64,000 nucleotides of DNA from a virus: IMG/VR virus record IMGVR_UViG_3300009128_000006, positions 1-64,000 of that record, one strand, 5' to 3'. The notes under the pieces are model-generated. The model worked only from the letters and a program-made list of their open reading frames with translations. It did not search any database and was not told where the DNA came from. A program made the position numbers and the translations under genes. Of this stretch, positions 1-48,935 are shown piece by piece. Every line of letters begins with the position of its first letter. Position 1 is the stretch's first letter.

Positions 1-208
1 AAGATCGATCCCGTCGATGTACCGAGCCTTGGAGTTCTGTCGGTAGAAGCGTTTTCTGCTTCCACCGGACCCACTCTTCGTGGACCGAACTCCATACGAT
101 CTTGCTGTTCTTGCACTCTGGATGCCTCCAGAAGTGCCCGTCTCCGAGCCGCGCGTTGACAACGGCTTCGGTCAGACTCCCGTAGGTGCTTGGCTGCTGA
201 TTGCCCAT
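1..208 (-). CDS. Intron-encoded LAGLIDADG-type homing endonuclease (partial, 5' end)
   Basis: An ATG at 208 lies inside the Q element of the group I intron and opens a frame of 69 codons that runs off the left edge without a stop. The product begins MGNQQPSTYG, the usual result when an endonuclease frame starts in an intron core. It continues with ARLGDGHFWRHPECKNSK and then a Trp- and Lys-rich stretch; the LGDGHF block resembles the first LAGLIDADG motif (family knowledge). Its role would be to cut intronless polymerase genes and drive intron homing. The missing C-terminal part prevents checking the second motif. It could instead be a degenerate endonuclease. Confidence 0.72.
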   Translation of the reverse strand, partial: MGNQQPSTYGSLTEAVVNARLGDGHFWRHPECKNSKIVWSSVHEEWVRWKQKTLLPTELQGSVHRRDRS

Positions 209-362
209 TTCCACATCCCCAATGGGATAGATATCCCAAAAGGCATGTTTCATACCACCACTTTTTTGCCCGTCGCGCTTGCCGTTTCCAGCTACGCTGT
301 GGGGTGGTGGTCTTTCGGGTGTTCCAGCAGTTCACGGGATTTTACAACCTCCATTAGTTCCA
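1..362 (-). ncRNA. Group I self-splicing intron in the DNA polymerase gene (partial, 3' part off the window)
   Basis: Read on the minus strand, the polymerase exon ends CAACCTT (369-363) and the intron starts at 362. The exon end pairs with AGGTTG-type guide sequence at about 351-344, giving a P1 helix that closes with the expected U-G wobble at the splice site. The core has a P-like element with CTGCTGG (about 332-326) and a Q-like element AATCAGCAGCCAAG (about 204-191); CTGCTG and CAGCAG form a perfect six-pair P4 helix. The reading frame stops at TAA, three codons into the intron. The R and S elements and the 3' splice site lie outside the window, so the intron is incomplete here. Confidence 0.88.
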
Positions 363-1889
363 AAGGTTGGGATTTCGACTGGCCAGCCGCCATGTACGAG
401 TGCCATGGGACAGGAGGCTGGTATGGACGCGGTCGTTCGCATCCGCCTTCTGCGGCAAGCTGATGAGGTAGTCGCCGTAGAGCTTCGAGAGCTTCCGGTG
501 CTTCATCAGCTCCACTGCCAGAGGCTCACCACGGTCCGAGAAGTACTCAAGCACGTCCTTGTCCGTACTCGGCTGCTTCACGCCTGAAGATCCACCCTTG
601 GTCATCTTGAAGGGCTTGTTCCCGAGGATGTCCTTGTACGTGCCGTCGGGCTGCTCGACGTAGAAGTACTCCCTTAGGTGCTTCGTGCTCTTGGGGTTGA
701 ACTCCAGACTGCCCGTGATGCGAACAATCTCTCGTTCAAGGTCTGCCAAGTCCTTGGCCATCGCCTCGGCGTACTCGTAGCACTGGCCGACATCGATCTT
801 GACCCCACGACGTTCCATGAGCCACAAAGTCTTGATGAACGGAACCCGTACTTTCTCCGAGTGCTCCAAGAGTGTGACAGGGACATCCTCTCCAGCATCC
901 ACACCCTCGGTGATCATGTCTTCGAGGTCGAGCTTGTCGCGGAGGTCATCGACCAGGGCATACGAAGCCCAGGCGTCCAGACTCGCGTAGTCCATCACCC
1001 GCGTCCGAAGGTACTCCACCGGATCGCCAGTGAGGCCCATCAGGTCCATCAGCAGTTCCCACGTGACTTCGTGAGCTTCGCGAAGCAGAGCTTGATCTTC
1101 GAGGACAGAGACCCAGCCGGTCCGGACCTTGTGATTCCGAATGGGCTCTCCACCCAGAAGCTGGATGTAGTCGGAGATGTACCCTTTTGGCCCGTAGGTC
1201 TTCGTGGCCTGTCCGTGTTTCCGGGCGATGGCCAGGACCTGTCGTGCCTTCAGAGCAAGCCCAGCCCTCAGAGAGAGATCGAGTTTCTTCAGATCCTTGA
1301 TGAGATCCTCTGCCCCATGTACGGCTCCCAGACGGATCAGTACTTTTTTGGCCAGTTCATCGGCCAAAGCCGGATTGTGGCCGGTGTCCTTCAACTCCAG
1401 GATGTCGTGGACTTCGCACATGAGCTTGACCTGTGCGTCCATGTTGCCTGGGTCTCCGAAGACCTCCTTGAAGGAGGTCATCGTCAGGCCGAGATGATCG
1501 TAGGCCGTCTCCTTCAGACCGTGACGACCCTGCCGGTTCTCGTCGTAGAGGTGGTCCTGATCGATAGAGTCCTGGATGTGCCCCTGAATCCAGATGTCGT
1601 GGTTCATCGTCAGGTGCATGTCGTACTTCGCATTCGACATACGCTTCTCGACGTCAGGACTCTCAAGCACCTCTGCGAAGTACGGCAGCAGCCGGACAGG
1701 AGCACAGATGCGAGACTCGTCGCACGCGAAGGAGAAGAACCTGACTCGATCGTTGAGAAGGTCGAGACCTGTGGTCTCGGTGTCGTAGCCGCAGACTCCC
1801 TTCTCCATGTAGTGGGAGTTCCAAAGGACGGCTTCTGCGACAGTGTTGATGTACGTCGGGAAAGGTGTCCTCACAATGGTAAAGGACAT
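363..1889 (-). CDS. DNA polymerase, family A, first exon (3'-5' exonuclease and start of polymerase domain)
   Basis: Exon of 509 codons. The exonuclease domain shows Exo I with DTETTGLD near residue 37, Exo II NAKYDMHLT near 90 and Exo III DYASLDAW near 310. The polymerase domain follows, with NPKSTKHLREYF and then HGTRTWRLASRNPNL, which matches the family A motif T-x-R-L-S-S-x-N-P-N-L-Q-N. The match stops exactly after NPNL, where the group I intron starts; the palm and fingers must be in an exon beyond the left edge. ATG at 1889 has GGAGG five bases upstream. It is the last gene in this window of the leftward replication block and likely the replicative polymerase. Without splicing, the product would be a dead 511-residue fragment. 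Confidence 0.92.
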
Positions 1890-1906
1890 TGATCCTCCAG
1901 TATGAT

Positions 1907-1929
1907 GAGGGGCCCAAAACGGGCCCCTC
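1907..1929. terminator. Hairpin between the polymerase and the upstream Cys-rich gene
   Basis: Perfect inverted repeat of GAGGGGCCC and GGGCCCCTC around an AAAAC loop, nine pairs, in the 66-base gap between two leftward genes. There is no clear T-run on either strand, so it may be an attenuator or processing site instead of a full terminator. Confidence 0.5.
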
Positions 1930-1955
1930 TTGATGTAGCGCGGCCGTAGCCGGGC

Positions 1956-3287
1956 CTACTCCCGGCGACGCCGACGGCGACGACCCGTCTTCCGGGCCGG
2001 CTTCCGGCTTGCGGTCTCCTGCCGCTCTGCCCGCTCCTGCGGCTCCTCGTCGCTGCGAGGTGCACCGCCACTGCTTCCACCGCGGTAGTTGCGGTAGCGG
2101 CCGCCAGAGGGCGACGAGAAGCTGTGGTTGGTGAAGTCTCGCGGCACGTCGACGTTGAGCTTCCGGGAGTGGAAGGCGTGGTCACGCGGCTTGTGGATGC
2201 TGTTGAAGTCCCACTGCGAGGTGATGGCCTTCCGGATGCCGTTCTCCTCCGTCCACACATAGTTGCCGTCGTCGTCCTCGCACGGAACCATGTTGTCGTC
2301 GTCCTCTTCGTCCTCCTCCCAGTCGATGAGGCTGCTCCCATCGGCGAGCTCGAACTCGGTGACCGGGATGACCTCCTTCACGACGATGTGCGTCCCCGTG
2401 CTCTCGCCCTCCTTCTTGACGAAGGCCACGACCTCGAAGGCCGAGAGGGCCTCGGGCTCGTCGCAGTCGCTGCAGGCCGACTCGAAGTCGGGGAAGCCGG
2501 TGTGTCCGCAGTGGGAGCAGGTCTGCCGTTCATCGCGGAACTTCGACACCTCCGACGCCTTCATGTCATCGAGGTCTGCGCTGCTGAGCACCTCGCTCTC
2601 GCACTCCTCACAGACGAAGCACACAGGCGTCAGATCACCACCGCAGCGGCAGAACTTCGCAGCCTCGTCGGCGATGCGCGCGAGGTCGTCGCGGTGGTTG
2701 GCCCCGACCTCGAGGTACTTCTTCTTGAAGAGGGCGACCTCCTTCTGCTCCAGCTTGTTGCCGATGCCCTCCCTGATCTCTCGGATCTCGCGAGGCGTCT
2801 CCACGACCTGCAGGGAGCGGATCGGATCACCCCGACGCGCGGTCTCCGTGTCTCGCTCGTACCGCTTCACACGGCCATCCCGGTCGAGAACCTCCTTCTT
2901 CGCGTACAGGGCCAGGTGGAGGATGTTGAAGCTGAAGTTGTCGTTGAGACCGACACGACGATCCCCGCGGTCCTTCGCGAAGCACGGCAGGCAGTCCACT
3001 TCGCCGTAGTCCAGTGCACAGCGATCCGAGTAGAACGACCCGGCTCCCTTGGGGGCGAGACGCATCTTGTGCATCTTGCAGGTGTGGAAGTAGAACTTGT
3101 CCTTGCTGTCGTCCGGGGCCGGGTAGTCCCCGTCGGTCAGCAGGATCGGGGTGAGCTCGTCCCGGGGGATGTTGAAGCGGTCCTTCCAGTTGCCGCGCCA
3201 TCCGCCTCCGCCCTTTCCCTTTCGAGACCTTCTTCCCCGTAGCGTGGACTGTCGCAGTCCGACCTTGCGGCCTTCTGAGCTACTCAT
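1956..3287 (-). CDS. Cys-rich zinc-ribbon protein of the replication block, candidate ssDNA-binding protein
   Basis: 443 residues, lying between primase and polymerase. The basic start (RGRRSRKGKGGGGWRGN) leads into an aromatic and acidic region with HTCKMHKMR. Two zinc-ribbon-like clusters follow: CRCGGD..CFVCEEC near residues 211-227 and CSHCGH..CSDCDE near 253-275. A very acidic stretch comes near 325-345 and an Arg-rich tail ends the protein. I do not recognise a named family. Position in the operon and the basic, zinc-binding, acidic layout fit a single-strand binding protein or recombination mediator, but this is inference. The start overlaps the end of primase by eight bases (ATGAGTAG) and has GGAGA upstream. 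Confidence 0.6.
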   Translation of the reverse strand: MSSSEGRKVGLRQSTLRGRRSRKGKGGGGWRGNWKDRFNIPRDELTPILLTDGDYPAPDDSKDKFYFHTCKMHKMRLAPKGAGSFYSDRCALDYGEVDCLPCFAKDRGDRRVGLNDNFSFNILHLALYAKKEVLDRDGRVKRYERDTETARRGDPIRSLQVVETPREIREIREGIGNKLEQKEVALFKKKYLEVGANHRDDLARIADEAAKFCRCGGDLTPVCFVCEECESEVLSSADLDDMKASEVSKFRDERQTCSHCGHTGFPDFESACSDCDEPEALSAFEVVAFVKKEGESTGTHIVVKEVIPVTEFELADGSSLIDWEEDEEDDDNMVPCEDDDGNYVWTEENGIRKAITSQWDFNSIHKPRDHAFHSRKLNVDVPRDFTNHSFSSPSGGRYRNYRGGSSGGAPRSDEEPQERAERQETASRKPARKTGRRRRRRRE

Positions 3288-4359
3288 TCGATCGTCTCCA
3301 TTGACGTAGAGTGTATGGATTGTTGGTTGATTCGTAGAGCTCGTCTCCAGTCAGCGCATCTGGCTGGACCCCTACGAAACGATAAGGATACCGGGCTACC
3401 AGCACCCTTAAAGCTCTGAGCTTATGGCCTATTCTAACCGTTCCTTTACGACCGGGCTCGTCGTCGTCCAGACACAAAATGACCGTACAGCCGATTCTTT
3501 CGAGAAACGTCTGCTGAGCCACACTCAGACTTGTGCCCATGAGCGCACAGGTGTTCTCGAAGCCGTGCTGGACCATCCAGAGACACGCTTTGTATCCTTC
3601 CGTCAGGTACAGAACACCGCCCGATCCCCCGTAAAGCCGGTCATAGATTCGGTCCCATCGCCACAAGTAGTCCTTGTTGCTGAAATGGTACCCGGGGAAC
3701 CCCATGTCGCGGAGCTCCTTCTCGTAGACCCTGTACTTTCCTCCCCTCCCATGATCCGGCTTTCCCGCAAATCCTGCGAGAGTGCCATACAGATCTCGGA
3801 TGGGGTAGATCACACGGCCACGCGCGATGTCGTAGCCGATGTCGTGGTCCCGAAGCACATCCTCATCGAACCCCTCATACAGTAGAGATTCGGGAGCGAA
3901 CTCGAAGAGGCCCAGGACTTTCTCTGGGAGTGGGTACGAGGTCTCGAACAGCTTCGCAGAACGACTACCAGGCTTCTTCCTCTCGGTCGGTACGAGATGG
4001 GGCTTCAATCTTTGAAGAGTACTCTTCACGTACTCTTGAGATCTTCCGAGCTTCTTCAGGAGGGAGCCGAGGCCTCCGCCTCCGCAACCTGCGAAGCAGT
4101 TCCACTGCCCTGTGGCAGCATTGAAGGAGAAGGATGGCTTAGATTTCCCCCGTTCCTCGCCGTGAATGGGACAGAAACCAATCCAGTTTGAGCCGCCGCT
4201 CGGTCTTAGACCCTCGATGTAGCGATGGGCCAGTTCGAGAGCGGCACTATTCCCAGAGCCCGGGAGGGAGCCTCGTCGGGCTTCTTTCCCTCTTTCCCTT
4301 CTTGCGGTGGCTCTTTCCTCCGCCTCCTCCGCTGTTCGTATTCTCCTCTTTCGAGTCAT
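3280..4359 (-). CDS. DNA primase, DnaG type (zinc finger plus Toprim)
   Basis: 359 residues that make RNA primers for replication. The zinc finger has Cys63, His66, Cys88 and Cys92 (CPIH, then CFAGC), the CHC2 pattern. The Toprim domain has LTEGYKA near 248 with the catalytic Glu, and ILCLDDDEPG near 296 with the metal-binding Asp residues. It is shorter than bacterial DnaG and lacks the C-terminal helicase-binding domain, as in many phage primases. The first 112 bases overlap the end of the helicase gene in another frame; the helicase tail there is low-complexity, so both frames can be real. A weak AAGG precedes the ATG. It very likely works with the DnaB-type helicase next door. Confidence 0.9.
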   Translation of the reverse strand: MTRKRRIRTAEEAEERATARRERGKEARRGSLPGSGNSAALELAHRYIEGLRPSGGSNWIGFCPIHGEERGKSKPSFSFNAATGQWNCFAGCGGGGLGSLLKKLGRSQEYVKSTLQRLKPHLVPTERKKPGSRSAKLFETSYPLPEKVLGLFEFAPESLLYEGFDEDVLRDHDIGYDIARGRVIYPIRDLYGTLAGFAGKPDHGRGGKYRVYEKELRDMGFPGYHFSNKDYLWRWDRIYDRLYGGSGGVLYLTEGYKACLWMVQHGFENTCALMGTSLSVAQQTFLERIGCTVILCLDDDEPGRKGTVRIGHKLRALRVLVARYPYRFVGVQPDALTGDELYESTNNPYTLRQWRRSNE

Positions 4360-6916
4360 CGACCTTGTTGTCCTTCAGGAATGCCTCCACGTTTGCGTTC
4401 TCCATCCTCAGCGAGAAGTCTGCGCCAGGCCATGCGTTGACGATCATCGGATTCAACAGCGCATCCCGAACTCCGGGGAAGACCAGGAGTAGTGCTGGCT
4501 TACCAGTCACAGGGTCTCTACCCTTGAAGATGCGGATGACCAGGTCAGCATCCTGTCCGATGGCATCTGCAAAGGCCAGCTCTCCCAGGTCATCACCACG
4601 GCCCTTGGCGGCTCCGCGGTTTGCCTGAGTGGTTCCGATTACTGGAACGGAGAGCTGCTGGCCCATGTTTTTCAGGTCCGCACTGATGTTCGAGATCTGC
4701 TTCCAATCCCGGCTCGTCACCCGTGTTCGGCCATCGCGCATCAGGTAGAACCCGTCCACGAGGATGAGGTCTGGCTCGAACTTCTCTGCCTCTGCCATGA
4801 TGACGTCGACCGTCGCGCCTTTCCTCCCCTTGAGATTCTTGTCGCTCAGGAAGCTCATTGCAGCCTGACGCTTGGTGTCCGGGTTGATCTCCTTGTCCCA
4901 GTGCTCGAACGAGTCGAGCATGTCGAAGTAATGCTCCCGATTGATGTCGCTCAGAGTCCCTGTCTTGATCTCGTGGTAGTCAAGACCTGCCAGGATGGAA
5001 GCAACTCGACGGGCCATCTGCTTGTCTGACATCTCCTTCGAGTAGATGAGTACCCGTCGTCCGTTGAGGTAAGCATCTGCGCATATGGCAAGGGCCAGCC
5101 AGGTGTTGTGGACTACGAAGCCTTCAACAACGAAGTTTGGATCCTGTCCGTCCTCAATGATCAGATCCCAGCACTCCCTCTTCCCAATAGGGGTGATGTC
5201 CTTGATCTGCTCCCACATCAAGTCCTGAGCTGCGATCTTCCGTAGCGGTTCAGAGTCCCATGCGTTCGCGATCTTCTTCAGCAGACGACGACTGATCTTC
5301 CCTGTCCGTCTAAAGAGCTTGCTTCGATCCAGATAGGATTGGCCCATCTTTGGCCATTCCTTTGTACCTTTCTCACGAAGGATGAGGGACATCAGCTCTT
5401 CGGAGTATGGCACTCCATCTACGTTCCGTTTGGTGGCTCGTGGCTCTGCCAGCTTCTCCAGCCCTTCTCTCTTCCTGGGACACTTCACATATGGGAGCAT
5501 CTCACGTGCCAGAGCCTGATGCGGACCCAGCCCGTAGGCTGAGACAGACCATTGTCCGCTATGGCTATTGGAGGCAAACGAGAGTTGCGCAGCAGTGCCC
5601 AGCCTCTTGAGCAGGTGATGGATTCCTCGAGCCAGCTTCTCACTGGCTGTGTACCATGCCACTTTGTAGGGCTTCTTTGTCCATACGGTCCCGTCGGTAT
5701 CGAGGAGGCCTGCCAGGAAGGCTGCTACGGATGCCGGGCTGGAGGTGAAGATCCACTCAGGGACTTCCTTATCCACGGCCTTCTTGCCGTGGATACCCAT
5801 ACTTCGAAGTGCTCGAAGTGCGTGGTTGGTCCCAGGAACCTCAGAGATGATCCGGTACTCATGAGCGCGATACGCCGCAACAACTTTGCAGCGATACAGC
5901 TCCCGACAGATCCGGTCTACCTCATCGACGATCTCTGTATCGACGTTCGTGAACTGAAGCTCATTGCGGGTGTAGTTCCCATCACCAATCAATGCCCCGA
6001 TGACCCATGCCTCTTCCGGATGGTCAATGACCCACTCCCACTCTGGAACTGCTCGGGTCGTAGCGATCCAGTCTCCTACCTCCAGGTTGCAAATCCTCTC
6101 GTAGACATCCTCAAAGGATCCTTCAGGAACCATGAAGAGATGTTCGGTGCTGGTCTCCACGACATGCCCGGACATCGTAGTGACCCGGACACACTCCTTG
6201 TCTCCACTCGGAACCTTTCTTGCCTGTGCCCAGCGGAGCTTCTCCGTGCTCTTGGTGTAGGACGCCACTTCGTTGTGGTCGGCCAGTTCTTCAATAGGGA
6301 CGAGATGTCCGGACGGGACCATGATCTTTTGTCCCGCCACGACGCACTTCATAGATTTCGGACGAGCGTAGATGACGATGAAGTCCTCGGGGTGCATCCC
6401 TCCTGTGCCTCTGTTGAGAGGGGCCCAGGGGAAAGGGAGACCGGTGATCCCCCCGGTCTCCATCATCGTCGTGTAGTCGCCCTTCAGCAGCGGAGCCGCA
6501 CTGGCCATCAGAAGGTGGTTGCTCTTCCCGCCTGAGACGTTGAGATCCTTCAGACGAGGAAGCAGTGCCTGCAGCACCAGACTCGGATCGAGGCCATCAA
6601 GAAGGAGCTTCTCTGTCTCGTCGAGAGCATCCTTCATACCGGCAGTCAGGCGACGGTCTTCCAGCTCTGTAATGAGCGAGTCGACCGAGTCTCGGCTCGT
6701 GACCGGCTTGAAGTTGCCGAACCTGCGGCAGACTTTCCCGAAGTCCGGGACCTCTCCCAGATGCTGCGGATGGTTGAAGTGCTCGTGCATCCACTGGAAG
6801 ATCTCTCGAGCCTCCCCCGTAAGGAAAAGGTCCGGGGTCACTCCGCGTTGCCGTATCTGCGTAAAGCTACCAGATCGGATGATGGCAGACAGGAGTGCCA
6901 GCTCAGGATTGGCCAT
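4247..6916 (-). CDS. Replicative DNA helicase, DnaB-like, interrupted by an intein
   Basis: 889-residue precursor. The N-extein (1-190) has a DnaB-like helical domain and ends YARPKSMK. The C-extein (605-889) starts TWLALAICADAY, so splicing rebuilds a P-loop ARPKSMKT. Later motifs are LILVDGFY (Walker B), GTTQANRG and a C-terminal Arg segment. This fits the SF4 ring helicases that unwind the fork; the P-loop lacks the canonical first Gly, as is common in phage versions. The C-terminal 50 residues are Gly/Lys-rich and overlap the primase start. ATG at 6916 shares a base with the previous stop (TGATG). Mature length after splicing would be about 475 residues. Confidence 0.9.
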   Translation of the reverse strand: MANPELALLSAIIRSGSFTQIRQRGVTPDLFLTGEAREIFQWMHEHFNHPQHLGEVPDFGKVCRRFGNFKPVTSRDSVDSLITELEDRRLTAGMKDALDETEKLLLDGLDPSLVLQALLPRLKDLNVSGGKSNHLLMASAAPLLKGDYTTMMETGGITGLPFPWAPLNRGTGGMHPEDFIVIYARPKSMKCVVAGQKIMVPSGHLVPIEELADHNEVASYTKSTEKLRWAQARKVPSGDKECVRVTTMSGHVVETSTEHLFMVPEGSFEDVYERICNLEVGDWIATTRAVPEWEWVIDHPEEAWVIGALIGDGNYTRNELQFTNVDTEIVDEVDRICRELYRCKVVAAYRAHEYRIISEVPGTNHALRALRSMGIHGKKAVDKEVPEWIFTSSPASVAAFLAGLLDTDGTVWTKKPYKVAWYTASEKLARGIHHLLKRLGTAAQLSFASNSHSGQWSVSAYGLGPHQALAREMLPYVKCPRKREGLEKLAEPRATKRNVDGVPYSEELMSLILREKGTKEWPKMGQSYLDRSKLFRRTGKISRRLLKKIANAWDSEPLRKIAAQDLMWEQIKDITPIGKRECWDLIIEDGQDPNFVVEGFVVHNTWLALAICADAYLNGRRVLIYSKEMSDKQMARRVASILAGLDYHEIKTGTLSDINREHYFDMLDSFEHWDKEINPDTKRQAAMSFLSDKNLKGRKGATVDVIMAEAEKFEPDLILVDGFYLMRDGRTRVTSRDWKQISNISADLKNMGQQLSVPVIGTTQANRGAAKGRGDDLGELAFADAIGQDADLVIRIFKGRDPVTGKPALLLVFPGVRDALLNPMIVNAWPGADFSLRMENANVEAFLKDNKVDDSKEENTNSGGGGGKSHRKKGKRERSPTRLPPGLWE
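5105..6346 (-). mobile_element. Intein with LAGLIDADG endonuclease in the helicase P-loop
   Basis: 414 residues (191-604 of the precursor). It starts with Cys at CVVAGQKIMVP, has the block B motif TSTEHLF, and ends GFVVHN before Thr+1. Endonuclease motifs are VIGALIGDGNY and FLAGLLDTDGTV. Insertion falls between Lys and Thr of the P-loop, so the helicase cannot bind ATP until splicing is complete. All residues needed for splicing (Cys1, block B His, terminal His-Asn, Thr+1) are present. Confidence 0.95.
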
Positions 6917-7215
6917 CAGAGCTCCGGGTCGTCATCGTCGAGGGTGACCGTCTCATCGTCATCGTCGACGAGAGGTTCCTCTTCGCGTGTGCCTCCCGCA
7001 CTTAACCCGATCGTAGCCATCAGGTCGCTCACCAGCTGGTCTGTCCCGCGTTTGAACACTTCCCACACATCGTCCTTGACAGTAACGATGGTCTCCTGTT
7101 TCGACGCAATCAGATGCTCTTCGTCACCGTTCGAGAAGTAGATGTTGGAGGTGAGGATGGCCACCCTTTGTGGGATGACCAACTCCACCTTCAACACGTC
7201 GTGCCGGATGCTCAC
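6916..7215 (-). CDS. Hypothetical protein, acidic C-terminus
   Basis: 99 residues, not recognised. A compact region (LKVELVIPQRVAILTSNIYF) with alternating hydrophobic residues is followed by a Gly-rich link and an Asp-run tail ending DDDDPEL. I chose GTG at 7215, which forms a GTGA overlap with the upstream stop and has GGAG about ten bases before it; a GTG four codons earlier is possible. Its stop shares a base with the helicase start, so the two are likely co-translated. The acidic tail could mediate protein contacts, but no function is assigned. Confidence 0.65.
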   Translation of the reverse strand: MSIRHDVLKVELVIPQRVAILTSNIYFSNGDEEHLIASKQETIVTVKDDVWEVFKRGTDQLVSDLMATIGLSAGGTREEEPLVDDDDETVTLDDDDPEL

Positions 7216-7550
7216 CCAGACACCCACTCCTCGAAGAGTGTCCGAGCCTTCTCGAAGACGTCGGGCAAGTTCTCTTCTGCGACGGCGGCGGCTGCTGCCA
7301 ACGCGTCAGAGACGGCCTCTTCATCCTGGGCACAGGTCAGAGCGACGGAGACGTGCGCGCCGTAGCCCTTCCCGTAGTTGTTGTCCTTCATGTCCATCGA
7401 TGCCGTCACACGGGCTTCCGTCCCGTTGAGCATCAAGGCACGAAGTGGATCGATCGTCGGCATCTTCACCTCCTGGGTGTGTTGGCCGTGGTAGGTCTTG
7501 ACCTCGCCGTCGTTGACGAGGGTGATTGTCAGTGTGACCGCTGCTTTCAC
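7212..7550 (-). CDS. Hypothetical protein, Ala-rich helical C-terminus
   Basis: 112 residues, not recognised. The N-terminal half looks like beta structure (AVTLTITLVNDGEVKTYHG), with a middle segment RVTASMDMKDNNYG, then an Ala-rich helix from about residue 78. It starts with GTG at 7550 overlapping the previous stop (GTGA) and ends in a GTGA overlap with the next gene. It sits in the leftward replication operon between two other small unknown genes, consistent with a small accessory replication or takeover protein (inference only). Confidence 0.65.
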   Translation of the reverse strand: MKAAVTLTITLVNDGEVKTYHGQHTQEVKMPTIDPLRALMLNGTEARVTASMDMKDNNYGKGYGAHVSVALTCAQDEEAVSDALAAAAAVAEENLPDVFEKARTLFEEWVSG

Positions 7551-7960
7551 TTGAATCTCACCGAGGCCGCCCGCTGCTTGGTTCGGACGAACTCCTTGTA
7601 CACCGCCTCAAGCTCTGCCGGAAGACGGAGGATCTGATGTGCGGCTGCGGTGTACTGCAGCACTCCCATTCGGATCAGAAGGTCGACGTCGCCCCGGGCC
7701 TGGGCCTCTTCCAGCAGACCTTCGAGGTCGACTTCGGCCTGCAGCTTGGAGGTGCTCACAGTGATCATGATGGGGCCGAGCTCGTGCTTCCCTGGTCCCA
7801 GCTTCCGAGCCGCTTCCTTGGCCGCCTTCTCTGCCTTTGGAAGCTCAACCTCGAGATCTCTGTACGCCTCCCACAGCTCTGGCTCTGCCTCGCCAATGGC
7901 GGCTTGAAGCTCCTCCATGTCCTCTCGAATGGTCTGAAGGGCTGCGAGCGGGTCAGCCAT
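7547..7960 (-). CDS. Hypothetical coiled-coil protein
   Basis: 137 residues with a strongly helical, charged N-terminal half (IREDMEELQAAIGEAEPELW and AEKAAKEAARKL), probably a coiled coil, and a second helical half with LLIRMGVLQYTAAAHQILRL. No catalytic motif is seen. ATG at 7960 overlaps the end of the glycosylase gene by eight bases. It could be a structural or adaptor protein in the replication block; the function is unknown. Confidence 0.65.
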   Translation of the reverse strand: MADPLAALQTIREDMEELQAAIGEAEPELWEAYRDLEVELPKAEKAAKEAARKLGPGKHELGPIMITVSTSKLQAEVDLEGLLEEAQARGDVDLLIRMGVLQYTAAAHQILRLPAELEAVYKEFVRTKQRAASVRFK

Positions 7961-8720
7961 CGTCGCTCAGGAGCAGGGACTCGCCATGCACCTTGTGGCC
8001 CAGCTCCTCCACCAGGGAGAGGGCGTACCGTAGGTCTTCCATGATGGCGTAGGTGACCCCTCGCTTCTTCTTGATCTGCGCAGCATCTCCTTTCCGAAGC
8101 GCGTAGCTCGGATCGAGTAGAGCCATCATCGGGTAGCGAACAGCCACGCCTGTGGGAGGAGAGGGGACAGAGATGTCGAAGATCCTGCCGCGCTTATGGG
8201 TAATCGGCACCATCTTGCCGACCAGGGCACTCGCTGCCGTCTTTCCTGTGGCGATGATGAGCTTCGGGTCCACCGCATAGATGGCTCGCTGGAGCCGTTC
8301 CCTGCACGCCTTCACTTCATTCCTCGAAGGCGACCTGTTGTCCTCTGGGAAGCACATCACGATATTCGTCCAGTAGATGTACTCGTCGAGCAGGTCTCTG
8401 GCGGCATCGAAGTATTCGGCCTCGTTCTCGATCTCCCTGATCGACTCAACGACCTCTCGGTCGGGCCACACATTGAGAATGAGATCCATGAGGAGCTCTC
8501 CGGCGGGCCCTCGGAAGGACTCTCCCATCCCATCTCCAATAGATCCCGGAGCCTGACCGATCACCATTAGCGAAGCCGAGGCACTTCCACTGCCGAAGAC
8601 GATCTGGTTTCGGTTGGCACAGAGCGAAGGACACTTCTGACAGTCCCGGTACTCGTCTCGCAGGCTCACCAAGGCCGGGAGCCCGACAGACGGAGCGAAA
8701 TGGGCGAGGGCGGAGCTCAT
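7953..8720 (-). CDS. Uracil-DNA glycosylase, family 4/5-like
   Basis: 255 residues that would remove uracil from DNA. The N-terminus has Cys27, Cys30 and Cys34 (CQKCPSLC); family 4 enzymes use four Cys for a 4Fe-4S cluster, and a candidate fourth is in TNIVMCFPE. The active-site block is GQAPGSIGDG (55-64), followed by FRGPAGELL. A later block KLIIATGKTAASAL matches the glycosylase fold. The ATG forms an ATGA overlap with the preceding gene. In the replication operon it could keep uracil out of the phage DNA or help DNA processing. The enzyme class is clear, the exact family less so. Confidence 0.85.
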   Translation of the reverse strand: MSSALAHFAPSVGLPALVSLRDEYRDCQKCPSLCANRNQIVFGSGSASASLMVIGQAPGSIGDGMGESFRGPAGELLMDLILNVWPDREVVESIREIENEAEYFDAARDLLDEYIYWTNIVMCFPEDNRSPSRNEVKACRERLQRAIYAVDPKLIIATGKTAASALVGKMVPITHKRGRIFDISVPSPPTGVAVRYPMMALLDPSYALRKGDAAQIKKKRGVTYAIMEDLRYALSLVEELGHKVHGESLLLSDDG

Positions 8721-9163
8721 CGAGTTGGGTCGATGTTGACGAAGTGCCCAGCGGTCCAGCGGTTGGTAGGCTCGTTGCGTACTCGTGTCCCAGGCGGTGG
8801 CCGAAGGATGGGTGACTCACGGGCCGGCTTCTCTGCTCGACGAGGCGGCTTCTCGATGCACGTCTTGTAGAGTCCGCAGATGCTCTCGTTCCGCCTCAGG
8901 TCAAGGAAGATGTCCGCGTTGACGGGCAAATCCGTAGGACCGGCCATCGGCGGGATGGGGATGGGGTGGATGTTCGTCTTGATGGTCCCCTTGTCAGGGA
9001 CGTGCTGCACGATGAGCTCCAAGGCATCCACCAGCTCAACGCACGCACCTTCCCGGAAGTTCTTCCGCTGCCGCTTGAAGTCTCCCTTCGCTTTCCCGAT
9101 GTAGTAGTACGCGCCCACGCGCACACCGATCAGGTCTTCCATGTAGTTCTCGTTCTTCTCCAT
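8717..9163 (-). CDS. Hypothetical protein of the replication operon
   Basis: About 148 residues starting MEKNENYMEDLIGVRVGAYY. I prefer ATG at 9163 because GGGAG lies six bases before it; an upstream in-frame ATG at 9202 lacks a site and lies further inside the helicase gene. The central part has KAKGDFKRQRKNFREGACVE and predicted beta strands with IHPIPIPPMAG. The tail is basic and disordered. It overlaps the helicase end by 34 bases and the glycosylase start by four. No family recognised. Confidence 0.6.
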   Translation of the reverse strand: MEKNENYMEDLIGVRVGAYYYIGKAKGDFKRQRKNFREGACVELVDALELIVQHVPDKGTIKTNIHPIPIPPMAGPTDLPVNADIFLDLRRNESICGLYKTCIEKPPRRAEKPARESPILRPPPGTRVRNEPTNRWTAGHFVNIDPTR

Positions 9164-10527
9164 CGGTCTCCCTTCTCCGGCCACTTGTGTTGCCGGCACC
9201 ATGCGAGAACCGAGTAGGTAAGTCCTCGGCTCTGGTTGGTATTGCTGTCCATGAACAGGTCGATGACAGGATCCTTCTTCCCTGTCATGGGCCTAAGAAT
9301 CCTGCCTGCGGCCTGAATCCACTCTGTAGCTGCGTGGTTGTCCGCCCCTATGGGCGAGGCCATCACCAATGCACTCAGAGCCTTCCGGTTGTATGCCTCC
9401 TTCCCCAGATGAACCGTAGTGGCCGTCACCTCGGCCAGGTTCAGCTGCCGAAGTCGCTCCTCGGCTCCCTGCTCTCGCTGGATGTGCCCCACACCCACAC
9501 CATGCTCTCGCAGCATCCTGACTAAGAGATCAAGATGCTCACGGATATGACTGAGCAGGTAGACCTTGTGCCCCTCTTTGAGGCGCTTTCGTATCTGTCC
9601 GACGATCTGCGTGTTCCGACGCGACATCTCGCCGAGCCGGCTTCGAAGTCGTGAGACATTGGGTTGACCCAGACAGTCCAGGATCTCAGGATCGTCTGTG
9701 AGGTCTATCCCTGTCTCCCACACCCACACTTCAGGGATGAGGGCATCTTCGGCAGGATCGTCGTAGACCACAGGGCCGATGTGAGCTGTCACGATGCCCT
9801 CGCATCGGTCCCTACGCTTCAAGGTCGCCGTTAGACCGAGTCGTCGCCCACTGGTGACGTTGCTCCCTACGCAGAACCACTTCGCAGCTTGGTGATGCAC
9901 CTCATCGAAGATGATGAGCCCAAAGCGACGAGCGAAGCCCGGAGGCAGGGCCCCAGCCTGAGCCCTCTTCGCCAAGGTCTGAATGGTGCACAGCACAACC
10001 CCGCACTTCCAGTCCATCTTGTCCTTGTCGATCCAGCCGACCTTCCCTCGATAGTCGAACCACTCTCGAAGCTCGATGGTCCAGTTCTCCAGGTGGGCGG
10101 CCTGTGCGGACACCACAAGGGTCGGACCAGGTGTCTCGCACGAGAGTCTCCAGCCCATGATGGTCTTCCCTCGGCCTGTGTCCAGACGGAGAGTGAGATC
10201 CTCATCCCATGCGACCATCGCTGCCCAGGCCGGGATCTGGTGCTGGAGTAGTGTGAAACCGGCCTTCGGTTTCATGTCTACCGGTGCGAACCGCTGCGGT
10301 CGAAGATCTACGAGCTCGACCTTCATCTGCTCGATAATCTCGGCTCTTACGGAGTTCCTCGGCACTTCCAGGTGGTGTTTGTGCTCTACCAGAAGTACTC
10401 GATCTTCTCCTTGGAAGTCAGGGAAGGTCAGCATCCTCTGGAGAGGAGCCCGCCCGAAAGCTGACTTCGGGAGGTAAAGGTCGTTCCCGATGTAGGCCTT
10501 GTCAGATTCCAGGCGGGCCAGCCTCAT
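9130..10527 (-). CDS. SF2 DNA helicase (DEAD/DEAH type, UvsW or RAD25-like)
   Basis: 465 residues starting MRLARLESDKAY at 10527, where ATGA overlaps the upstream stop. The frame stays open for 120 codons further upstream, but that part is antisense-like shadow of the neighbouring gene. Motifs: P-loop RLDTGRGKTIMGW near residue 105, DEVH box LIIFDEVHHQ near 210, motif III LTATLKR, and motif VI QAAGRILRP near 430. The layout of two RecA lobes with a short N-terminal domain fits helicases that remodel forks and recombination structures, such as T4 UvsW. It belongs to the leftward replication and repair operon. Confidence 0.88.
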   Translation of the reverse strand: MRLARLESDKAYIGNDLYLPKSAFGRAPLQRMLTFPDFQGEDRVLLVEHKHHLEVPRNSVRAEIIEQMKVELVDLRPQRFAPVDMKPKAGFTLLQHQIPAWAAMVAWDEDLTLRLDTGRGKTIMGWRLSCETPGPTLVVSAQAAHLENWTIELREWFDYRGKVGWIDKDKMDWKCGVVLCTIQTLAKRAQAGALPPGFARRFGLIIFDEVHHQAAKWFCVGSNVTSGRRLGLTATLKRRDRCEGIVTAHIGPVVYDDPAEDALIPEVWVWETGIDLTDDPEILDCLGQPNVSRLRSRLGEMSRRNTQIVGQIRKRLKEGHKVYLLSHIREHLDLLVRMLREHGVGVGHIQREQGAEERLRQLNLAEVTATTVHLGKEAYNRKALSALVMASPIGADNHAATEWIQAAGRILRPMTGKKDPVIDLFMDSNTNQSRGLTYSVLAWCRQHKWPEKGDRWRRTRTTWKT

Positions 10528-35241: not shown

Positions 35242-35295
35242 GTTGGGTGTCTCCAGACCCGGCACCATGGATTAGGTGTTTACCGGGCTATTCTC

Positions 35296-35301
35296 CTTAT
35301 G
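35296..35301 (-). promoter_or_regulatory. CATAAG element between the RNase HII unit and the terminase
   Basis: CTTATGGCAGGGAAAGG on the plus strand, 60 bases upstream of the leftward start at 35241 and 12 bases before the terminase ATG at 35313. Its 3' part overlaps the terminase ribosome site. Confidence 0.42.
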
Positions 35302-35312
35302 GCAGGGAAAGG

Positions 35313-38300
35313 ATGGGCATTTACGACGAGGATCCTGACGTTCTGGAGTACTCCATTGAAGGGTGGAACTCCCTTGAGTACCGGGAGCCGTGGGATCACG
35401 AACCACCGATTCCTGCCGTAGAGGATTGGGAGGTAGAGCGACACTTGCGGGAGCAGAGGCTCCGCTACGCCCTCACCCCGTCGCAGTTCACGGAAGAGAC
35501 TGTGCTCATGCCCAACGCGAAGACGCGGGCATTGGAGGCGTTTTCCTTCGCAGATCGTCCTTACCTGAGGAAGGTCTACAATACGCAGTCCAATCGTGTC
35601 CTTCTCATGGCCGGACGGCAGGTGGAGAAGTGTGTTCATGAAGATGAAGTAGTAGTCGACTCTTTCGGCAAGCCGACCCCTATCAAAGACCTGTTGGTCG
35701 GCGATATACTTGTGTGCTTGGCTACCGAGGAAACGTCCCCGAATGTTGAGCGAGGGTCGGGATCTCGGATGACCACGTCAAAGATTACGTGGAAGTCTCG
35801 CAAGCGTAAGAAGCCTTGCCGCGAGATCCGGACGAGACAGGGCCATCGCTCTCGTATGGCTACGACACATCCTGTTCGGGTGTGGAACGGGTGGAAGGCT
35901 GCTGGAGATCTCGAAATAGGAGATCGAATCGCAGTGGTTCGTAGGGCAGGGGTGTTCAGCAGCTGCGATTACGACGTGTCTTCCTCTCGGGTACGGCTCA
36001 CCGCCTACATGATTGGAGATGGCGGGTGCAACCCCAAAGACGTGACCTTCACGAACGAGACCTTTGAGGTCCTTGACGATTTCGACGATGCTCTTGTTGA
36101 TGAAGGGATGTCGTACACCTTCTCACCCAAGAAGGATTCAAACACGACCTGCTTCCGTCTCCCTCGCTATCGAGCAGAGAAGCTCCGTGGATGGCTGGAA
36201 GAGGATGGTCTTTTGGGGACGGACTCCTACTCGAAGTTCCTTCCTGATTGGGTATTTCGTCTTTCGCGAGAGCAGACGTCTCTGTTCCTGAACAGGCTTT
36301 GGTCTACAGACGGGCACGTCAAGTGCAACACCGACACGAAGTGGTCCATCGAGTACTGCTCTATGTCGGAGAGGCTGGTCAGGCAGGTTCAGGCATTGCT
36401 GTGGAAGCTTGGCATCCCTTCCAGGATCAGAGAGAACTGGCCTTCGATCTATAAGAAGCGCGGTGAGAAGGTTCTTGCTTATATCCTCCGTATCGAGACT
36501 CAAGAAGGTGTACGTTCGTTCGTTCGTGACATCGGTGCGCTTGGAAAGATCGAGCGGCAAGAGCTTGACCCCTGGGAGACCAACAACAATCGAGACACGT
36601 TGCCGTTGGAGGTGAACGAGTTCATACGGGAGATCTACGATGAGGTCTCACCGAAGAAGGGAGACCGAACCCTTCAGTCCGCAGGACTTCGCCGTAGCCC
36701 TAAGTACTGCCTGACCCGGAAGAAGCTGCTCGCGTATGTCGAGTTTTTCGAAGGAGACCCTCGATACTCACCCTCGAAAGTTCGGCTCCTGAAGGAGCAC
36801 GTGAGTTCTGACATTTACTGGGACGAGGTGGAGTCTATCAACGAGATGGGGGAGCAGTGGTGCTACGACCTGACGGTTGATCGTCATCACAACTTCGTCG
36901 CAGGCGGGATTGTCACGCACAACAGCACCTCTCTCGGTAATCGGATGCTGGCTCTATGCTGCCTCATCCCGCATTTCCGTGCACTGTACGTCTCCCCGTC
37001 TTCAACACAGACCAAGGAGTTCTCGAACCGGCGGTTGCGTGAAGTCTTGATGACCTCGCCGCGACTGAGGACGTGGTTCCCGCAGCATCTCACGGACAAT
37101 GTCTTTGAGAAGCGAGCCATCAACCGGAGTGGAATCACACTCCGGTATGCGTTCCTCAACGCAGATCGCTGCCGGGGACTCTCTGCAGATAGTGTCATCC
37201 TCGACGAGTTCCAGGATCTCCTTCTCGACACTATTCCGGTCATCGAGGAGGCTGCGTCCCACTCCGCCTTCAAGTACTTCATCTACGCAGGAACTCCGAA
37301 GTCGCTCGACAACCCGATCGAGCACTACTGGTCCACCTTCTCGACTCGCAACGAATGGGCAGTCCCCTGTGAGCGGCACGGCACTCCTAAGGTTCCGGGC
37401 TCCTGGCACTGGAACATCCTGGGTGAGAGGAACATCTCCAAGGCCGGACCGGTCTGTGACCGCTGCGGCGGTCCCATCTTCCCCAACCATCCGAAAGCAC
37501 AATGGGTCCGTACCGGTAACCCCGACCCCAACCTCACGGTCTTTGAGGGTTTCCGCATCCCGCAGCTCATGGTCCCCTGGATCAGCTGGAAGGAGCTGTG
37601 GACCAAGTACACGGACTACCCACGTGCACAGTTCTTTAACGAGTGCCTGGGCCAGTCCTTCGATTCAGGACAGCGCCCTCTCACTCAGGACGACATCAGG
37701 CAAAACTGTGATTCCTCAATCACCCTCACTCCCGAAGGGGTGGCCGACATCCGTCGACGGATGGCGGGGGTTCAGCTCTATGGCGGCATCGACTGGGGCC
37801 AGGGCTCGACGAACTCGTACACGGTGTTCTTCGTAGGCGGGTACCTCAACAACAAGTTCACCATCTTCTTCTGCCATCGCTTCGTTGGAGCGGAATCCGA
37901 ACCGCGCACCCAGCTCAAGAAGATCTGCAGGATCATCGAGACCTTCAACCTTGCCCGCGTCTGTGTTGACCATGGTGGAGGCTTCTGGCCAAACGGTGAG
38001 CTTCTTCGTCGCTATGGCTCCAATCGCATCGTACGGGTGCAGTACCTCACGCCGAATGTCTTCATGCGTTGGGATGAGGCTCTTGGGCGGTACATCATCC
38101 ACCGCTCCGAAGTCATGTCGGCGATGTTCAATGCCATCAAGCGTGGCACCGTAGTCCGCTTCCCCGCATGGAAGTACTTCAAGACTCCATTCGCCAAAGA
38201 CTTCCTGTCCATCTTCTCTGAGTACAGCGAGAAGATGCACATGACGCAGTACAAGAAGTCGGCCAACAACACCGACGACTCCTTCCATGCGTTCCTCTAC

Positions 38301-38396
38301 TGCTTCCTCTCCTCGATGATTGACATTCCACGTCCTGATGTCTTCATCCCCTCGCAGGCTGTAGACCGTATGCTTGAGGCTCGTGAAGAATACTGA
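35313..38396 (+). CDS. terL: Terminase large subunit with intein
   Basis: 1027-residue precursor, about 596 after splicing. The ATPase pumps DNA into the head and the nuclease cuts it. The N-extein ends LLMAGRQVEK and the C-extein starts STSLGNRMLALC, together a terminase P-loop. Walker B is SVILDEFQDLL near residue 630, followed by a C-motif region with YAGTPKSLDN. The nuclease domain has YGGIDWGQGS near 828 and CVDHGGGFW near 886, with Asp residues that can bind metal. A zinc pair, CDRCG with an upstream Cys-rich loop, lies between them. ATG at 35313 follows AGGGAAAGG. A strong terminator lies after the stop. Confidence 0.93.
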   Translation: MGIYDEDPDVLEYSIEGWNSLEYREPWDHEPPIPAVEDWEVERHLREQRLRYALTPSQFTEETVLMPNAKTRALEAFSFADRPYLRKVYNTQSNRVLLMAGRQVEKCVHEDEVVVDSFGKPTPIKDLLVGDILVCLATEETSPNVERGSGSRMTTSKITWKSRKRKKPCREIRTRQGHRSRMATTHPVRVWNGWKAAGDLEIGDRIAVVRRAGVFSSCDYDVSSSRVRLTAYMIGDGGCNPKDVTFTNETFEVLDDFDDALVDEGMSYTFSPKKDSNTTCFRLPRYRAEKLRGWLEEDGLLGTDSYSKFLPDWVFRLSREQTSLFLNRLWSTDGHVKCNTDTKWSIEYCSMSERLVRQVQALLWKLGIPSRIRENWPSIYKKRGEKVLAYILRIETQEGVRSFVRDIGALGKIERQELDPWETNNNRDTLPLEVNEFIREIYDEVSPKKGDRTLQSAGLRRSPKYCLTRKKLLAYVEFFEGDPRYSPSKVRLLKEHVSSDIYWDEVESINEMGEQWCYDLTVDRHHNFVAGGIVTHNSTSLGNRMLALCCLIPHFRALYVSPSSTQTKEFSNRRLREVLMTSPRLRTWFPQHLTDNVFEKRAINRSGITLRYAFLNADRCRGLSADSVILDEFQDLLLDTIPVIEEAASHSAFKYFIYAGTPKSLDNPIEHYWSTFSTRNEWAVPCERHGTPKVPGSWHWNILGERNISKAGPVCDRCGGPIFPNHPKAQWVRTGNPDPNLTVFEGFRIPQLMVPWISWKELWTKYTDYPRAQFFNECLGQSFDSGQRPLTQDDIRQNCDSSITLTPEGVADIRRRMAGVQLYGGIDWGQGSTNSYTVFFVGGYLNNKFTIFFCHRFVGAESEPRTQLKKICRIIETFNLARVCVDHGGGFWPNGELLRRYGSNRIVRVQYLTPNVFMRWDEALGRYIIHRSEVMSAMFNAIKRGTVVRFPAWKYFKTPFAKDFLSIFSEYSEKMHMTQYKKSANNTDDSFHAFLYCFLSSMIDIPRPDVFIPSQAVDRMLEAREEY
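35631..36923 (+). mobile_element. Intein with LAGLIDADG endonuclease in the terminase P-loop
   Basis: 431 residues (107-537 of the precursor). It begins CVHEDEVVVDSFGKP, has block B MATTHPVRVW, endonuclease motifs AYMIGDGGCNP and FLNRLWSTDGHV, and ends GGIVTHN before Ser+1. It sits between Lys and Ser of the P-loop, the same structural site as the helicase intein. Confidence 0.95.
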
Positions 38397-48641: not shown

Positions 48642-48935
48642 TTGAGCCTTCTTCACGCCTTGAACTCGCACCCCGGACGACGCATGTCGTCTCGTGGGCG
48701 TGCGCTTCAGAGCTTGAAGAAGGTTGGATCTTCAGGGCTTGAAGTGGCCGAGTCGATGGCCTTGGCGATGTTCGAAGGCTATGCTACGTCAAAGAGGGCT
48801 GAGGCAGACGACTCTACCCACGAATCCGAAGACGACGCACGTCGCCGGAGGATCGGGGAGCTTCTGAGACGTCGCGCCCCGTCAGGCCTGTCCACAGGCT
48901 CTGCAGAGCCCACACCTCCTCGGAGCAACTCATGA
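48642..48935 (+). CDS. Small basic hypothetical protein
   Basis: 97 residues from TTG at 48642, with GAGGT eight bases upstream. A helical, basic first half (RGRALQSLKKVGSSGLEVAE) is followed by a charged region and a Ser/Pro-rich tail. The stop overlaps the next ATG (ATGA), which supports it as a coding gene. Confidence 0.48.
   Translation: MSLLHALNSHPGRRMSSRGRALQSLKKVGSSGLEVAESMALAMFEGYATSKRAEADDSTHESEDDARRRRIGELLRRRAPSGLSTGSAEPTPPRSNS

What the first reader, a model, noticed from the sequence alone, without database searches (positions are those of the whole stretch)
1..363. Group I intron with LAGLIDADG gene at the NPNL-QN site of a phage family A polymerase
The polymerase frame ends exactly after NPNL and runs into a stop. 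The RNA beyond has a perfect P1 with U-G at the splice site and a six-pair P4 between CTGCTG and CAGCAG. It has a Q element, and an endonuclease frame starts inside Q. This explains the apparently truncated polymerase. The rest of the intron and exon 2 are off the window.
Basis: partly seen in the sequence, partly recalled or inferred. Interest (0 to 1): 0.8.

Follow-up and report, generated by a model that had tools for sequence, protein, structure and literature searches.

The report
Group I intron splitting phage DNA polymerase
The window begins inside a mobile, self-removing RNA insert in a bacterial virus's DNA polymerase gene; near-identical assemblies show the whole insert and the missing second half of the gene, so this is a good new example of a known kind of element.

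Summary
Confirmed and extended. Window 363-1889 (-) is exon 1 of a family A polymerase ending at NPNL. Window 362-1 (-) is the first 362 nt of a 927-nt group I intron; the window record simply stops inside it. Two other contigs are identical to the window over the shared 7,889 nt and run on: L005 has the rest of the intron and exon 2 (QNIPSRG... to a stop). Relatives without the intron (17 of 17 nearest) read straight through PNLQNIP. Seven homologous introns give hand-placed core helices with 361 of 365 cells paired and two-sided changes at 32 of 54 positions, P3 and P7 included. The insertion site and ribozyme core match the published intron of Xanthomonas phage phiL7 (site 676). phiL7-type introns carry an HNH endonuclease; this one carries a diverged LAGLIDADG_2-like gene in P6a, so the endonuclease differs on one ribozyme at one site. 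A LAGLIDADG_2 gene in a phage polymerase intron is also known (phiNIT1, neighbouring site). Verdict: new member of a known kind. The more unusual by-product is relative L009, whose polymerase has the same intron plus an apparent split intein six codons upstream and a second intein at motif A.

The parts
363..1889 (-). polA exon 1 (3'-5' exonuclease-like domain and start of the family A polymerase domain), ends ...RNPNL
   Evidence: Pfam DNA_pol_A E 4.7e-19 ending at residue 511 of the frame, DNA_pol_A_exo1 E 5.8e-9; exon boundary from L005, L009, phiL7 and intronless relatives
1..362 (-). 5' 362 nt of the 927-nt group I intron; remainder lies off the window (L005 7890-8454)
   Evidence: L005 identical over 7889 nt and continues
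363..369 (-). P1, exon strand CAACCUU (splice-site U at 363)
345..351 (-). P1, internal guide GAGGUUG
   Evidence: 7 of 7 pairs in each of 7 introns; compensatory change in L118
333..339 (-). P3 5' strand UCCCGUG (partner CGCGGGA at intron 834-840, off window)
   Evidence: 49 of 49 cells paired, two positions with two-sided change
325..330 (-). P4 5' strand CUGCUG
194..199 (-). P4 3' strand CAGCAG (in Q)
   Evidence: 39 of 42 cells paired over 7 introns, four of six positions with two-sided change
317..319 (-). P5 5' strand CCC
204..206 (-). P5 3' strand GGG
304..310 (-). P5 extension helix, CCACCAC
   Evidence: L009 has CCAAGC/GCUUGG in its place
255..261 (-). P5 extension helix, GUGGUGG
224..228 (-). 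hairpin before the endonuclease start, 5' arm AUCCC
   Evidence: L009 has CACCCU/AGGGUG there; role in hiding the ribosome site is inferred
215..219 (-). same hairpin, 3' arm GGGAU
192..193 (-). P6 5' strand CC (partner off window)
185..188 (-). P6a 5' strand CACC; the endonuclease gene fills the P6a loop
   Evidence: partner GGUG next to R in L005 and L009
1..208 (-). endonuclease gene, first 69 codons plus one base (MGNQQPST...NARLGDGHFW...), cut by the window end; complete as 209 aa in L005 7682-8308
   Evidence: LAGLIDADG_2 E 7e-4, below cut-off; 66% identical to L009

Best explanation
A group I intron (P7.1/P7.2-bearing, IA-like, phiL7 lineage) interrupts polA between Leu and Gln of NPNL|QNIP. 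SHOWN from sequence: the complete intron and exon 2 in near-identical contigs, a covarying ribozyme core, intronless relatives continuous across the site, stops just inside the intron, and a complete conserved 209-codon endonuclease frame filling the P6a loop. INFERRED: the precursor RNA folds, guanosine attacks after the P1 U-G pair, the exons join to make an intact polymerase, and the endonuclease, made from unspliced RNA under a hairpin that may hide its ribosome site, cuts intronless polA alleles so that repair copies the intron. The window ends inside the intron because its assembly stops there, not because the gene is broken.
For: Intron and exon 2 in L005; identity to the window over 7889 nt; junction NPNL|QNIP continuous in 17 of 17 nearest intronless relatives among 66 loci translated of 80 found, and 20 of 20 loci given to the DNA-junction script; PHROG polymerase profile matched to position 984 by exon 1 and from 983 by exon 2; helices 361 of 365 own cells paired against 1582 of 2112 (75%) with strands exchanged between introns, two-sided changes at 32 of 54 positions; homologous intron at the same site in phiL7 and in L114/L120, L116, L119, L121; blastn of the L009 intron to another phage's R-S region E 7e-9; endonuclease dN 0.28, dS 1.90 between L005 and L009.
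Against: No splicing or cleavage was observed. No Rfam match reaches gathering score; best 14.4 bits in the window and 19.3 in L005 with its 5' half mis-threaded through the endonuclease gene. Helix strands were picked by eye, which inflates the paired fraction. P10 is only about two pairs (sequence reading). The LAGLIDADG call is below curated cut-offs; no PDB relative; the structure model failed (mean pLDDT 36). dS near 1.9 is close to saturation. In L005 the exon 2 frame is unexpectedly open through the endonuclease gene.
Confidence: 0.95

Rival explanations
1. The polymerase is simply truncated or frameshifted by mutation or assembly error, and the downstream pairing is chance.
For: The window record does end 362 nt past the exon and holds no second polymerase part.
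Against: Two other contigs give the same 7889 nt and L005 was read on into exon 2; the same insert stands at the same codon in L009 and phiL7-type phages with covarying helices.
Confidence: 0.01
2. The intron is a relic: ribozyme or endonuclease no longer active.
For: No activity was measured; P10 is weak; profile scores are low.
Against: All core helices intact, both endonuclease motifs intact, dN/dS about 0.15, no stop in a 209-codon frame. A dead ribozyme would leave the phage without its own family A polymerase (inference).
Confidence: 0.06
3. The exons are expressed as separate proteins: exon 2 starts inside the intron and assembles with the exon 1 product without RNA splicing.
For: In L005 the exon 2 frame is open from intron base 22 to exon 2, with no stop in the 209 codons overlapping the endonuclease gene, against a mean of 8.1 in synonymous shuffles (0 of 5000 open; minimum 1 in 3000).
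Against: L009 has stops in its exon 2 frame at intron offsets 770 and 800; 5 of 30 long genes in the window have +2 open runs over 209 codons; the split would fall inside the polymerase active-site region; the ribozyme core is conserved.
Confidence: 0.03

Closest known systems
Group I intron of Xanthomonas phage phiL7 DNA polymerase (EU717894; PMC3428280, passages seen)
   Same: Same codon junction PNL|QN, same guide sequence, homologous core from P1 to the 3' splice site, endonuclease gene in the P6 region.
   Different: phiL7 carries an HNH endonuclease whose gene runs on through R to S; the present intron carries a LAGLIDADG_2-like gene that stops just before R, and has a long P5 extension.
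Bacillus phage phiNIT1 polymerase intron with LAGLIDADG_2 gene (AP013029; PMC11878797, passages seen)
   Same: Phage family A polymerase, group I intron, LAGLIDADG_2 endonuclease (PHROG 11023).
   Different: Inserted two codons earlier, after DP of DPNL; endonucleases only 23% identical over 119 residues.
SPO1/SP82/SP8/Bastille/Pf-WMP3 polymerase introns (I-HmuI, I-HmuII, I-BasI, I-PfoP3I)
   Same: Group I introns with endonucleases, described as subgroup IA2, in the same conserved polymerase stretch.
   Different: Site 674 instead of 676 and HNH endonucleases (SP8 exon end read).

Membership tests
Group I intron | P1 with U-G at the 5' splice site formed by exon and internal guide | tested here: met
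   7 of 7 pairs in each of 7 introns
Group I intron | P3/P7 pseudoknotted core with covariation | tested here: met
   P3 49 of 49 and P7 41 of 42 cells paired; two-sided changes at 2 and 1 positions
Group I intron | P4-P6 with Q element, R and S elements | tested here: met
   P4 39 of 42, P5 21 of 21 cells; R and S in L005 and aligned in seven introns
Group I intron | 3' terminal G | tested here: met
   ...AUCAAGG|CAAAAC
Group I intron | Rfam RF00028 gathering score (a detection threshold, not a biological feature) | tested here: not met
   14.4 and 19.3 bits of 50; known introns of phiL7 and SP8 also fail at 31.7 and 27.1, so the score is not diagnostic for introns split by endonuclease genes
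Group I intron | guanosine-initiated self-splicing | not testable with these tools
   needs in vitro transcription
phiL7-type site-676 polymerase intron | insertion between Leu and Gln of PNLQN and homologous core | tested here: met
LAGLIDADG_2 homing endonuclease | profile match above curated cut-off | tested here: inconclusive
   20.0 and 20.5 bits of 25, E 7e-4 and 5e-4; PHROG 11023 E 0.003 and 0.0013
LAGLIDADG_2 homing endonuclease | two LAGLIDADG-type motifs with acidic residues | tested here: met
   NARLGDGHF and IGMWYLDDG / LGMWFLDDG conserved in L005 and L009; motif reading is mine
LAGLIDADG_2 homing endonuclease | cleaves the intronless junction | not testable with these tools
   needs purified protein
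Intein | open in frame with the host gene and splicing domain | tested here: not met
   stops at intron offsets 6 and 18 in frame; no Intein_splicing match in the polA region of the window record

The most novel reading that the evidence does not exclude
In relative L009, one phage polymerase needs three kinds of splicing within about 60 codons of its active site: protein trans-splicing by a natural split intein whose halves overlap as ATGA, removal of this same group I intron six codons later, and cis-splicing of a second, LAGLIDADG-bearing intein at motif A (VADY|C). With the window phage (intron only), phiL7 (same intron, HNH gene) and intronless relatives, this makes a natural series showing how different mobile elements stack on, and exchange endonucleases at, one conserved stretch.
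Probability: 0.6. Interest if true: 0.6.

Novelty: new member of a known kind. Interest (0 to 1): 0.4.

Why it matters
It rescues an apparently truncated polymerase as an intact spliced gene and adds a clean case in which the same ribozyme at the same codon carries unrelated endonucleases in different phages (LAGLIDADG_2-like against HNH), supporting the view that endonuclease genes move independently of introns. Annotation pipelines miss it: no Rfam match reaches gathering score. The L009 relative would let one ask directly how intron, split intein and intein compete for one target.

Tried and rejected
Broken gene or assembly error: rejected by exon 2 in L005. Intein: rejected, in-frame stops and no splicing-domain match there. 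Circular genome joining the two ends of the window record: the last 1000 bases of the record match neither related contig, so not supported. Exon 2 elsewhere in the own record: absent. The weak second DNA match at 48720 (33 bases, E 6e-4) is not polymerase by the profile search. Z-genome idea from DpoZ hits: no PurZ-like (adenylosuccinate synthetase family) match in G000, G001 or G002. Endonuclease relatives in phages and plasmids: none. Structure prediction of the endonuclease: unusable. Bacterial genomes: the 5'-end pattern hit 8 stretches, none with an upstream PNL frame or an S element, taken as chance. A pattern from R/P7.1 found 13 stretches: three are the intron contigs already known; the 10 others have no match to our exons or endonuclease and hold related cores in other genes. 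The split-intein half recurred in no other contig (itself plus two short 31-residue matches), so a frameshift error in L009 cannot be wholly excluded.

Caveat on counts: one P9.x strand pair for L116 was set wrongly (1 of 5) and was corrected, where P8 and P9.x were also cut to five pairs; L118 was not given P7.1, P7.2 or P9.x strands. P6, P6a, the P5 extension and the hairpin before the endonuclease start were counted only and are not in the totals. L114, L116, L119 and phiL7 are close relatives, so cells are not independent events. Of 80 loci, 14 were left out because the match began beyond motif A or was partial; of the 66 given, L045 was too short to show the site and L064 and L088 are interrupted before motif A.

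Full report
THE OBSERVATION. The minus-strand polymerase frame (1889-354) ends ...NPNL-W-N-stop. The last exon base is 363; bases 362-1 are intron.

THE MISSING HALF. The window lies in a 90,156-base virus record and is its left end; the record holds no other part of a family A polymerase. A search with the exon 1 protein found two contigs, L005 and L006, both 100% identical to window bases 1-7889. L005 continues: intron 7528-8454 (927 nt), exon 2 8455-9408 beginning QNIPSRGDWG. Exon 2 is family A polymerase (E 2.1e-53). On the PHROG polymerase profile exon 1 ends at position 984 and exon 2 starts at 983. The truncation is therefore where the window's assembly stops.

INTRONLESS RELATIVES. A scan with the exon 2 alignment gave 80 loci, 66 of which were translated upstream. 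The 17 nearest without the intron (L025-L040, L087) all read PNLQNIP without interruption. Around the junction 20 of 20 loci given to a script match the joined L005 exons at 13 to 16 of 18 bases.

THE RIBOZYME. L009, found with the endonuclease fragment, has a 914-nt intron at the same place. phiL7 has a 682-nt intron at the same codon junction, with a homologous core. A pattern from the conserved 5' end found four more polymerase copies at that site (L114/L120 with the same sequence around the site, L116, L119, L121 cut) and one endonuclease-less intron just before a capsid-like gene (L118; gene name from my reading of the protein, no call). Aligned and paired by hand, the core has P1, P3, P4, P5, P6, P7, P7.1, P7.2, P8, P9 and a further 3' hairpin. 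Over ten helices 361 of 365 cells pair, against 1582 of 2112 when strands are exchanged between introns; 32 of 54 positions show two-sided change. P9 and P7.1 end in GNRA-type loops in every copy where they were assigned (sequence reading). P7.1/P7.2 is a mark of subgroup IA (recalled); PMC3428280 places the phage polymerase introns in its tree in IA2 (legend passage). Rfam does not reach gathering score here, but nor does it for the established phiL7 and SP8 introns.

THE ENDONUCLEASE. The gene fills the P6a loop, from ATGGGC in the P5'/Q strand to a TGA directly before R. It is 209 residues, 66% identical to that of L009, dN 0.28 and dS 1.90, third-codon identity 46% against 72% and 80% at the first two positions: selected as protein. 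LAGLIDADG_2 is the best profile but below its cut-off. Only three contigs were found to encode it in the viral collection, and no match was found in phage or plasmid records. A short hairpin precedes its start in both introns with different sequences, which may hide the ribosome site as in T4 introns (recalled analogy; inferred).

COMPARISON. PMC3428280 (passages) reports polymerase introns at E. coli sites 674 (SPO1, SP82, Bastille, Pf-WMP3), 676 (phiL7) and 881 (PhiI, W31), with HNH endonucleases. PMC11878797 (passages) reports a LAGLIDADG_2 endonuclease in a polymerase intron of phiNIT1; I read its exon 1 end as DP|, the 674-type site. [quoted passage not shown] So site and both endonuclease types are known; the combination, a phiL7-type intron at site 676 with a LAGLIDADG_2-like gene, I did not see in the papers listed (of which I read only the passages named).

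L009. Its polymerase frame stops at RIAKEEE and restarts at an overlapping ATGA; N- and C-terminal pieces match the intein splicing domain (E 6e-5 and 6e-4, both below the Pfam cut-off) and the C-terminal piece matches the intein C-terminal model above its cut-off (21.1 against 15.6 bits). The extein reads RLA|SASPNL, then the intron, then QNIP, then a second intein at VADY|C (E 3.4e-4). The arrangement is in one contig only.

UNRESOLVED. In L005 the exon 2 frame crosses the whole endonuclease gene without a stop (mean 8.1 expected in synonymous shuffles; 0 of 5000 open). It is not conserved in L009, and 5 of 30 long genes of the window have longer +2 open runs, so I lean to chance. An element in a phage methylase with a hidden out-of-frame HNH gene is described in PMC11855218 (abstract and outline) and offers a parallel.

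Noticed in passing
L009:2912-7469: polA of a relative with an apparent split intein (halves overlapping as ATGA), the same group I intron six codons on, and a second intein with a LAGLIDADG-like motif at motif A.
   Followed up: partly
window 4247-6916 (-): DnaB-like helicase with an in-frame intein carrying LAGLIDADG_3.
   Followed up: partly
window 35247-38393 (+): Terminase large subunit-like (GpA ATPase, below cut-off) frame with an intein carrying LAGLIDADG_3: polymerase, helicase and probable terminase of one phage all carry splicing elements.
   Followed up: partly
L005:7555-8454: Exon 2 frame open through the intron, overlapping the endonuclease gene in another frame; rarer than synonymous shuffles allow but not conserved in L009.
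   Followed up: partly
L118:3134-3350 of the reverse complement: Endonuclease-less group I intron of about 210-230 nt with the same core, near the start of a capsid-like gene.
   Followed up: partly
L135-L144: Ten contigs with related R/P7.1 intron cores in genes other than polA; L142 has a LAGLIDADG-like ORF beside it.
   Followed up: no
L064 and L088, about 4972-5010: Polymerase motif A reads SADYS then a stop, with SQQE following in another frame, in both contigs; upstream lie HNH-like (L064) and GIY-YIG-like (L088) ORFs by my reading.
   Followed up: no
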